Part shown: positions 46,207 through 49,200 of the stretch, one piece after another
Layout: each line of letters starts with the position of its first letter
Numbering within the stretch: position 1 is the stretch's first letter
Source of the DNA: Bolinopsis microptera
Lineage: Eukaryota > Ctenophora > Tentaculata > Lobata > Bolinopsidae
Direction of reading: 5' to 3'
Assembly (NCBI RefSeq): GCF_026151205.1
Contig: NC_087081.1
Coordinates: forward strand, 8,427,246 to 8,491,245
DNA length: 64,000 nt
Notes under the pieces: model-generated
What the model was told of the DNA's origin: nothing
Database searches by the model: none
Seen by the model: only the letters and a program-made list of their open reading frames with translations
Made by a program: the position numbers and the translations under genes

Positions 46207-49200
46207 ATGCCCCATTGTTCAGATAGCTGGCAGAACTTTGAAGGCTTTGAAGAATACTTTACTAACGTAATATGCAACCTTACCTCTGATAAATTCAGTA
46301 AGTCAGGATACTACATAATATTGCTCACACGAGAATAAGTTTATTAATTAAAGATTCTTAGAATAAGTTTATTAATTAAAGATTCTTATCTAAAGACGAA
46401 ATGTTGTGAAATCAATTTATCGTGATCTGGATCAACAGGATAAATAATATCAATACTGTGGAAATTGAATCGTAAGAATATAAAACAATCTATTTTAAAT
46501 TCATGTATGATAATTATCAGGCCGAGAAAAGGAGAAATGGGAGGATGAAGAAAGGAGACTGCTTACAGAGCAGAAAAACTTAGCGTTCAAACACTACCAA
46601 TCCTTCGTGTCAACAGCAGAGTGTAGCAGTGATATCAGGCAGTCGTTTGACGGGCTGGAGGTAAACTTGGACAGTGTCATTGAAACTGTTCCCGAGCTAC
46701 AGGATACGTTGTACAAGTGCAGTAAACTGGCGGTGGAAACTAATAAAATGTAAGTAAACTAGCGGTGGAAACTAATAAAATGTAAGTAAACTGGCGGTGA
46801 AAATTAACAAAATGTAAGTAAACTGGCGGTGGAAACTAATAAAATGTAAGTAAACTGGCGGTGGAAACTAATAAAATGTAAGTATACTGGCGGTGGAAAC
46901 TAATAAAATGTAAGTAAACTGGCGGTGGAAACTAATAAAATGTAAGTAAACTGGCGGTGTAAACTAATAAAATGTAATTTAACTGGCGGTGTAAACTAAT
47001 AAAATGTAAGTAAAATGGCGGTGAAAATTAACAAAATGAAAGTAAACTGGTGGTGTAAACTTATAAAATGTAAGTAAACTGGCGGTGTAAACTAATAAAA
47101 TGTAAGTAAACTGGCGGTGGAAACTAATAAAATGTTAGTAAACTGGCGGTGTAAACTAATAAAATGTAAGTAAACTGGCGGTGAAAACTAATAAAATGTT
47201 AGTAAACTGGCGGTGTAAACTAATAAAATGTAAGTAAACTGGCGGTGGAAACTAATAAAATGTGAGTAAACTGGCGGTGAAAATTAACAAAATGAAAGTA
47301 AACTGGTGGCCTATTATATGGAAGACTATTGTTCTTAAAGTTGACAACTGTTGATACTCAGGAATTTATCAAATTATTGTTTTTCCATAATTAGATGGTG
47401 TTGATACGTTTTAATTTTCAAGTACATATTATACTTGTGTAAGACTGGTGTCCTTCAATTCTTCAAGTTTTATCTGCAGTTATTTAACAAGGACAAGTAG
47501 AAACAATAACAGTTGCCAATAAATGTGTAGTTTGTTGAAGTTCAGTTATGGTCCACATCTAGGTAAACTATAGGTAAAAATATAATATTAATCATAAGCT
47601 AAAATGTACTAATCTTTGTATTCTAAATGGGGAAAAGAAGAAACATTGTCAGTCAGTCGAGAAAATTGTCAGTCAGGCTATATGGCAGCTTTGTAGATGT
47701 TGTGACAATGCTAGTAGTGGTCCCAGGCTTGCGACTGGAATTGCGGTGTTAAATCGATTTAACGGTATACCAACGATCCACCTCCCACTTGTTGTTTGGT
47801 ACTTAGCATACATAGTATCGATTAAGCTTCTCAAACAAAGGTGGCAACAAAACAGAACTCCATGGAAAACATCATCAACTAATCGTTACGGATTGTTCCC
47901 TATGGGGGCCAGATTATAGGGAACATAATGGTCGGACACCGTTGGGAACTAACAAATTGTAAGTCTACTGGTGGTTTAATCTATCAAAATGTTTACTGGT
48001 GGTGGAATCAAAATCTTAAGCACGTTAGGGGAAATCTCTACAACCGATTAGTAAACTGTAACGAATAACGATATCTCTCCTACCATAATAACCTATAACA
48101 ATATCTTCTCCACCAGGAGAAAAGAAGCAAATATCAGCATCTCGAAACACCCCCAACTACTTGAGATACTGGAACTACCTCAGCTTATAGACACCAGCAT
48201 TAGAAACAGTTACTTTGAGGAGGGGTTGGAACTGCATAGTTTCGTTAACAACTTAGCCGTTAAATACAATGACATTCCTATCATTCAGGTTTTATGTAAT
48301 TTTAGTTTAGCAAATTAAACAAATATTGCAACATGATATTCCAAATATGTTGATTAACCATGCCAAGAGTCTACAACATATGCCTCTATGTATGTGCACG
48401 TGTTATATTCTTTTTGCCAAGTTTAGGGAAACGATTAGATGGTTTTGTTTTCATTCACATTTAAAATTGTTCATCTGGTCATCCTTATATTATCAATTCC
48501 ATCTCAACACTATTTGTCAGATGATCAAAGAAGATAGTGACGCGTGTATAAAGCACATGGAAGACATCTTGATAAAACAGCTACAAGGACAGATAACATT
48601 AGCTCAGTGTCTGAAGAGTGTCGGATTGTTGAGGAGAATTGGAACTTATACTGACACTCAGCTTAAGGTTATTATTAGGTTTAGAGGTTTAGAGGTTTAG
48701 AGGTTTAGAGGTTTAGAGGTTTAGAGGTTTACATTGTTTGAGTTATTTGTCTGATTGTCATGTTTTGTTTCTTATTGTTCACGATTATTTCTTTTACTGA
48801 CGACTTGACGAACGCTTGATTGTGTGCTGAATAGTATTTATAGTCGTCACAATGCGACTATGTAAACTATTCGACTATCAGGGCTAAAAGTTCCAGTTCT
48901 TAAAGCACAACCGTTGGGGAATATGCACGGTTTCCAAGTACCGCATAAGAGATTATAGCTTTATTGTTGGTAGTTTCTCCTTGATTGTTACAAGTACACA
49001 GTTTAGAATATAAATATTGCAGGTGAAATTTCTGCAAGTACGTTCAGAGTGGTTTCGAGGGATTATTGATAACTTAAATAAAGGAGAAAGTAAGTTTATA
49101 TCATAATCGTCCCTCGCATATTTACATGGTAGATGTCTTTCTTCGAGAATAATTTGCAATGGTTAAACGCACAAGAAATTATATCCTACCAATGGAGCGA

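What the first reader, a model, noticed from the sequence alone, without database searches (positions are those of the whole stretch)
46721..47309. COG8 intron built from copies of its own exon end and 5' splice site
The last 29 bases of COG8 exon 2 plus the donor were amplified into 18 full 32-bp units. The intron therefore carries one true donor and at least 11 identical GTAAGT donors in the same AAT|GTAAGT setting, plus GTTAGT, GTGAGT and GTAATT variants. Reading past the first donor meets an in-frame TAA at once (ATG TAA), so use of any later donor would truncate the protein. This is a natural test of how a spliceosome chooses among tandem equal donors, and it may act as a length-variable switch for COG8 dose.
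Basis: partly seen in the sequence, partly recalled or inferred. Interest (0 to 1): 0.85.

Follow-up and report, generated by a model that had tools for sequence, protein, structure and literature searches.

The report
Repeat array across COG8 splice site
In this animal's COG8 gene the end of one exon and its splice signal are repeated 18 times in a row into the following intron; this is real, but arrays of the same kind are already known in two human genes and in amphioxus, and nothing here shows that it acts as a switch.

Summary
The array is real and almost exactly as described. Eighteen full 32-bp units run from 46721 to 47296, plus a partial unit to 47309. Unit 1 is the last 29 coding bases of a COG8 exon plus GTA. 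Eleven further GTAAGT copies follow, with two GTTAGT, one GTGAGT and one GTAATT; two units have lost the GT. The gene is COG8 (Pfam Dor1, 2.5e-62); in my model the array follows exon 3, not exon 2. Use of any of the 17 later positions gives a stop after residue 118.

Best reading: a minisatellite straddling an exon-intron boundary, as in the human CBS and ABCA7 repeats and amphioxus 'mirages'. In ABCA7 about 2% of transcripts keep one unit; next-exon skipping grows with length.

Against a selected switch: donor positions vary as much as the rest of the unit, and boundary duplications are no commoner than duplications elsewhere (1 of 47 against 28 of 840). A genome-wide excess of tandem GTAAGT is outdone by a non-donor word. 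Open point: two C13 arrays resemble the unit, so copying from exon to intron is inferred, not shown. New member of a known kind.

The parts
46521..46749 (+). COG8 exon 3 (229 nt); its last 29 nt are the exonic part of repeat unit 1
   Evidence: splice signals and phase; conceptual protein hits Pfam Dor1 at 2.5e-62
46721..47309 (+). 32-bp tandem array: 18 full units (to 47296) and a partial unit
46750..46755 (+). true 5' splice site GTAAGT (phase 2; reads on as ATG TAA)
46782..47299 (+). 17 further donor positions: 11 GTAAGT, 2 GTTAGT, 1 GTGAGT, 1 GTAATT, 2 GAAAGT (dead)
47557..47816 (+). inserted copy of a high-copy interspersed repeat (about 260 bp, 97-99% identical to 39 other near full-length places listed)
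   Evidence: left boundary
47940..48068 (+). diverged relic units of the same repeat, with GTAAGT at 47959
   Evidence: local alignment score 87 against a maximum of 45 in 200 shuffles
48117..48288 (+). COG8 exon 4, joined in frame to exon 3; acceptor CCACCAG ending at 48116

Best explanation
A minisatellite that straddles a constitutive exon-intron boundary of COG8. A stretch holding the last 29 exonic bases and the donor was tandemly duplicated, then spread by unequal exchange or slippage with block copying between units. The spread is tolerated because the outermost (first) donor closes the exon, so extra copies fall inside the intron. Selection keeps only the exonic copy and its donor; the intronic copies drift. 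Expected behaviour, inferred and not shown here: the first donor is used in most transcripts, a few per cent use the next donor and are destroyed by nonsense-mediated decay, and longer alleles lower output, perhaps by skipping of the next exon as in ABCA7.
For: Exon copy equals the consensus and opens the array. Units 3, 10 and 18 share a three-site haplotype, and units 10 and 18 share a dead GAAAGT: block copying. Similarity between units does not fall with distance (2.1-2.9 differences at lags 1-11). Donor positions are not conserved in the intronic copies. The true donor is fifth of the nine modelled COG8 donors in U1 duplex energy, so it is not boosted against its copies. The same genome has other arrays that include a coding edge, on acceptor, donor-or-stop and stop-codon sides. 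Precedents with splicing data: ABCA7, amphioxus globins.
Against: No transcripts were available, so use of the first donor is not shown. The direction of copying, exon to intron, is inferred from one genome, and two C13 arrays with a like 32-bp unit (17 of 19 bases alike in the core) leave a shared origin open. Classic duplicated-donor experiments (recalled) often favour the intron-proximal site, and in DOK7 the intron-proximal of two sites is preferred, though it is also the stronger; on that rule the first COG8 donor should lose. In ABCA7 alternative transcripts taken together exceeded the canonical one in many brain samples, so 'tolerated' need not mean harmless.
Confidence: 0.74

Rival explanations
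1. Length-variable dose switch: repeat number sets the share of transcripts that leave from later donors, hit the immediate stop and are destroyed, and selection keeps the array for this.
For: Twelve of 17 later donors pair with U1 as well as the true one and all 17 positions lead to a stop after residue 118. In CBS and ABCA7 longer alleles go with lower activity or expression.
Against: Donor positions in the array are not constrained and two of 17 are dead. In ABCA7 retention of one unit did not change with length; exon-19 skipping did. Boundary duplications are not enriched.
Confidence: 0.1
2. Neutral boundary array, but with heavy mis-splicing: the allele is a partial loss of function that is tolerated or recent.
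For: Many equal donors downstream; an intron-proximal preference would favour them (and recalled work).
Against: Reading frame of the nine modelled exons is intact; the array has aged (92% identity, relics), so a strongly harmful allele is unlikely to have persisted; amphioxus RT-PCR is reported to suggest regular splicing.
Confidence: 0.07
3. The repeat came first: a minisatellite related to the two C13 arrays entered the boundary, and one unit became the exon end.
For: The COG8 unit and the C13 unit share a core (CTGGCGGTGGAAACTAATA against CTGACAGTGGAAACTAATA) and the 32-bp period; doubled units align at score 45, at most 25 in 2000 shuffles. Outside C10 and C13 only two single places in the genome match the core within one mismatch.
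Against: The C13 unit was picked as the best match in 265 Mb and doubling counts it twice, so the shuffle test overstates it; it has no GTAAGT; whether other COG8 proteins carry this exon end was not tested.
Confidence: 0.05
4. A genome-wide process in this species specifically amplifies splice donors.
For: GTAAGT alone is as common as its mirror word (160744 against 153150) but three in tandem are 5.4 times commoner (16393 against 3050).
Against: The non-donor word AGTAAC shows a 22-fold excess (42481 against 1889; its single-word counts were not taken): the genome is rich in GTAAC-type minisatellites, which often contain GTAAGT. Matches are also not arrays. Kinase boundaries show no enrichment.
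Confidence: 0.02
5. Assembly artefact.
For: Tandem arrays are prone to mis-assembly in copy number.
Against: Units differ by a structured set of substitutions, flanks are clean on both sides, and diverged relics exist; only the copy number could well be wrong.
Confidence: 0.02

Closest known systems
Human CBS 31-bp VNTR, c.1444_1467+7(16_21)
   Same: Unit is the exon end (24 nt) plus the first 7 intronic nt, 16-21 copies, so each copy carries a donor position; unit length and copy number nearly equal to those here.
   Different: Human, unrelated gene and sequence; polymorphic in populations and reported to go with lower enzyme activity when longer. No such data for COG8.
Human ABCA7 intron-18 VNTR (25 bp)
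   Same: First GT of the array is the exon-18 donor, the unit carries a donor, retention of a unit gives a premature stop.
   Different: Starts at the GT, so no exonic bases are in the unit as described in the passages seen; 12 to about 427 units; measured: about 2% one-unit retention, exon-19 skipping rising and expression falling with length.
Amphioxus 'mirages' (Adh3, globins BflGb6 and BflGb9)
   Same: Minisatellite-like tandem duplications of exon-intron boundaries, donor or acceptor side; concerted evolution within the cluster.
   Different: Different phylum; longer units in the globins (150-160 bp) and few copies (6 and 3 in two haplotypes of BflGb6); Adh3 units 10-72 bp.
Human internal tandem repeats at exon-intron boundaries in segmental duplications
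   Same: Minisatellites averaging 30-bp units, some at boundaries, that can form new introns.
   Different: On average 4 copies, in recent paralogues with transcript support.

Membership tests
Boundary-spanning minisatellite ('mirage') | Tandem repeat of minisatellite size covering an exon-intron boundary | tested here: met
   the boundary itself rests on a gene model, not on RNA
Boundary-spanning minisatellite ('mirage') | Repeat units contain both exonic sequence and a splice signal | tested here: met
   29 exonic nt plus GTA AGT
Boundary-spanning minisatellite ('mirage') | Concerted evolution inside the cluster | tested here: met
   flat divergence with distance, shared haplotypes among units 3, 10, 18
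Boundary-spanning minisatellite ('mirage') | Length variation between alleles or individuals | not testable with these tools
   one assembly only
Boundary-spanning minisatellite ('mirage') | Regular splicing undisturbed | not testable with these tools
   no RNA data held
CBS/ABCA7-type donor VNTR with dose effect | Later units carry a donor whose use gives a premature stop | tested here: met
   sequence and frame only: 15 of 17 later units have a GT, all 17 positions lead to a stop
CBS/ABCA7-type donor VNTR with dose effect | Expression or activity falls with repeat number | not testable with these tools
   needs population and RNA data
Intron gained by tandem duplication | Intron absent at this position in relatives; duplicated exon sequence at both ends of the intron | tested here: inconclusive
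   the acceptor junction itself has no second copy within 350 bp (best 11 of 20), but relic units lie 50-180 bp before it; no relatives' genes available

The most novel reading that the evidence does not exclude
The array is a selected, length-variable decoy bank: later donors capture U1 in a repeat-number-dependent way, each capture leads to the immediate stop and decay, and COG8 dose, and with it Golgi trafficking, is tuned between individuals by copy number.
Probability: 0.07. Interest if true: 0.65.

Novelty: new member of a known kind. Interest (0 to 1): 0.3.

Why it matters
It adds a clear case, with 12 equal competitors downstream of the true donor, to a small set of boundary-spanning minisatellites, probably in a comb jelly. 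Such loci ask directly how a spliceosome picks the outermost of many equal donors, and other boundary arrays in this genome could serve as replicates. The general question is already open to test in human CBS and ABCA7, so the gain is breadth rather than a new principle.

Tried and rejected
Array as part of an interspersed family: the 589-bp array has listed matches only to itself, an 11-bp array on C4 and a 28/32-bp array on C13. The C4 match is shared simple words. The C13 match I first took as unrelated; on checking, its unit shares 17 of 19 core bases and the period, and the core occurs within one mismatch at 70 places: the COG8 array, two C13 arrays and one place each on C2 and C5. Kinship is left open; a widespread family is rejected.

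Genome-wide donor amplification: looked strong from GTAAGT (distinct forward arrays 8 in the first 2.6 Mb of C1 against 3 in 3.7 Mb for the mirror word) and TTTCAG (5407 against 1300; singles not counted), but AGTAAC (42481 against 1889; singles not counted) shows the excess is not specific to splice words; rejected.

Middle of the intron as decayed array: 47310-47560 scores 21 against a shuffle mean of 22; rejected. Conservation of intronic donors: none found. Decline of donor quality along the array: GTAAGT in 8 of 9 units in the first half against 4 of 9 in the second, Fisher p 0.13; not significant.

Frequency at boundaries: 47 exon boundaries listed by eye from 14 kinase loci, fetched around 14 of 136 kinase matches that I picked because they cover part of the domain; a few doubtful junctions were dropped before the count, and L081 and L083 are near-identical paralogues. 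One of 47, the L088 donor, has a boundary-spanning duplication (19 of 20 bases, 39 bp downstream). The 840 control positions lie in the same loci and are not independent of each other.

Species: the best solved relative of one glutamate receptor's ligand-binding region is a Mnemiopsis chain, but for the whole receptor a kainate receptor scores higher, and three other receptors gave nothing at 1e-70. The comb-jelly assignment rests mainly on 13 large contigs holding 258.1 of 264.65 Mb.

Full report
What is there. The region holds one tandem array of period 32, 46721-47306, 18.3 copies, 92% matches and no indels. Read out in register it is 18 full units and a partial one ending at 47309; mean pairwise identity 92.0%; the first unit equals the consensus. 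Twelve GTAAGT copies lie in the array including the true donor at 46750, plus two GTTAGT, one GTGAGT and one GTAATT; units 10 and 18 have GAAAGT.

The gene. A conceptual protein from seven exons matches Pfam Dor1 (the COG8 family) at 2.5e-62. The exons are 46005-46053, 46223-46297, 46521-46749, 48117-48288, 48521-48667, 49023-49089 and 49249-49379, joined by GT-AG introns with matching phases; 49816-49918 and 50123-50263 continue the frame. Later exons were not modelled. So the array starts in exon 3 of this model and fills the 5' part of intron 3 (46750-48116). The first 29 bases of the array are the last 29 of exon 3, coding SKLAVETNK and two bases of the next codon.

The rest of the intron. 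A roughly 260-bp interspersed repeat sits at 47557-47816; 39 other near full-length places at 97-99% identity are listed, and 544 candidates were found of which 40 were scored, so this is a lower bound. Beyond it, about 47940-48068, lie diverged copies of the same 32-bp unit (alignment score 87; maximum 45 in 200 shuffles), one with GTAAGT at 47959. The stretch 47310-47560 shows no trace (score 21, shuffle mean 22). The array, or a sister of it, was thus probably once present nearer the acceptor.

How it changed. Divergence between units does not rise with their distance (2.1 to 2.9 differences at lags 1 to 11). Units 3, 10 and 18 share the same three substitutions, and 10 and 18 also the dead donor. 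This is block copying inside the array. The donor hexamer of the 17 intronic units carries 1.0 differences per site against 0.85 elsewhere, and 4 distinct changes at 6 sites against 10 at 26. There is no sign that intronic donors are kept by selection.

Where the unit came from. I infer that the exon end was copied outwards, because that copy is coding, opens the array and equals the consensus. This is not proved. Two arrays on C13 have a 32-bp unit that shares 17 of 19 core bases with the COG8 unit; doubled units align at score 45 against at most 25 in 2000 shuffles. The C13 unit was the best match in the whole genome and doubling counts it twice, so that test overstates the case. The core within one mismatch is found at 70 places, all in the COG8 array, in the two C13 arrays or, singly, on C2 and C5. 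Chance likeness and common origin both remain possible.

What splicing would face. In a simple duplex with the U1 5' end (sequence recalled), the true donor scores -7.0 kcal/mol and 12 of the 17 later ones score at least as well; it is fifth of nine modelled COG8 donors. Splicing from any of the 17 later positions to exon 4 gives a stop after residue 118. So correct expression requires choosing the outermost of 13 equal sites. Which site is used could not be tested.

Precedents. Human CBS has a 31-bp repeat described as c.1444_1467+7(16_21), that is 24 exonic and 7 intronic bases in 16-21 copies (PMC2630376, passages); more units are reported to go with lower activity (PMC5188458, passage, citing Lievers 2001, which I did not see). 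Human ABCA7 has a 25-bp repeat whose first GT is the exon-18 donor; retention of one unit was about 2% in all tissues tested, gives a premature stop and did not change with length, while exon-19 skipping rose and expression fell with length; in 90% of one brain region's samples alternative transcripts together exceeded the canonical one (PMC5954066, passages). Amphioxus globin and Adh3 genes have 'mirages', tandem duplications of either boundary, suggested by RT-PCR not to disturb regular splicing (PMC3087553, passages). Boundary repeats that form introns are described in human segmental duplications (PMC2812944, passages). COG8 fits this kind.

Is it common in this genome? I looked by eye at 15 arrays on C1 chosen because they repeat GTAAGT (all 8 in the list) or TTTCAG (7 of about 16 in the list). 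Four of the 15 include coding edge sequence: L028 (acceptor side, kinase gene, Pfam 1.4e-43), L068 (donor side, or a stop codon; no Pfam hit), L069 (acceptor side; no Pfam hit, leucine-rich-repeat-like by eye) and L071/L072 (end of a reading frame with its stop; no Pfam hit). Three only abut a splice site (L033, L040, L065), one lies in frame inside coding sequence (L076), and in seven I recognised no coding edge in the array (L064, L066, L067, the chosen array of L070, L073/L074, L075, L077). Two neighbouring arrays that I had not chosen also include a coding edge: a second one in L028 and one in L070 at a sushi-domain exon (Pfam 9.6e-19). In a set chosen by kinase homology, 1 of 47 boundaries shows such a duplication, against 28 of 840 random positions in the same loci; COG8 itself 1 of 13. 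Boundaries are neither hot spots nor protected, as far as this small sample can tell.

A lead that failed. GTAAGT three times in tandem is 5.4 times commoner than its mirror word although the single words are about equally common. That suggested donor-driven amplification. The control AGTAAC, not a donor, is 22 times commoner than its mirror in the same test (single words not counted). The genome abounds in GTAAC-type minisatellites, so the GTAAGT excess cannot be read as splice-related.

Species. Thirteen contigs hold 258.1 of 264.65 Mb (lengths), as expected for n = 13 comb jellies such as Bolinopsis microptera and Hormiphora californensis (PMC10232365, passages). One glutamate receptor's ligand-binding region has a Mnemiopsis chain as its best solved relative, though the whole receptor matches a kainate receptor better. 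This is a likely assignment, not a proof.

Literature limits. None used COG8 as a term. None of the listings named boundary-spanning arrays in comb jellies; subscription papers are not held.

Verdict. A real, boundary-spanning minisatellite, new in gene and probably in phylum, of a kind already known in humans and amphioxus. The dose-switch idea is possible but has no direct support here.

Noticed in passing
window 18439-20302: Perfect 359-nt inverted repeat arms (18439-18797 and 19944-20302) enclosing 21 TTAGGG-like repeats (19753-19878) that are flanked by inverted 15-bp repeats; a similar CTAACC core with like flanks is at L061 6436-6559. Looks like a mobile element with a telomere-like core.
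   Followed up: partly
window 20534-22399: 1.9-kb CCTTCT-type array giving long spurious open frames.
   Followed up: no
window 41564-44731 (-): Intronless 1056-aa P-type ATPase frame (Pfam E1-E2_ATPase 2.9e-24) next to intron-rich COG8; possible retrogene.
   Followed up: partly
window about 54300-54850 and 55270-55800: Two neighbouring copies of a dynein light chain gene (Pfam Dynein_light 3.5e-44 for a joined conceptual protein).
   Followed up: partly
L088, minus strand, base 490 of that strand: AKT-like (by eye) kinase exon end plus donor GGGGATTAG|GTGAGTGTAAT duplicated once, 39 bp apart, around a run of G: a two-copy stage of the same kind of boundary duplication.
   Followed up: partly
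L071/L072 (C1:1801500-1805500): 42-bp array that begins in the last codons of a reading frame and repeats its stop codon far into the 3' flank: the stop-codon analogue of the COG8 array.
   Followed up: partly
L076, minus strand: 30-bp repeat kept in frame inside a long coding stretch (DEVAVVGTVS-type, 3 copies).
   Followed up: no
L003 about 1490-2795 (C4): 1.3-kb array of the 11-bp unit TTTACTTACAG, starting at the end of what looks by eye like an exon; each unit reads as an acceptor on one strand and contains GTAAGT on the other.
   Followed up: no
G000:C13:1524342-1525588 and 1714558-1715327: Two minisatellites, 190 kb apart, whose unit core CTGACAGTGGAAACTAA resembles the COG8 repeat unit.
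   Followed up: partly
whole genome: AGTAAC three times in tandem occurs 42481 times against 1889 for its mirror word: a strong, unexplained bias of minisatellites towards GTAAC-type units.
   Followed up: no
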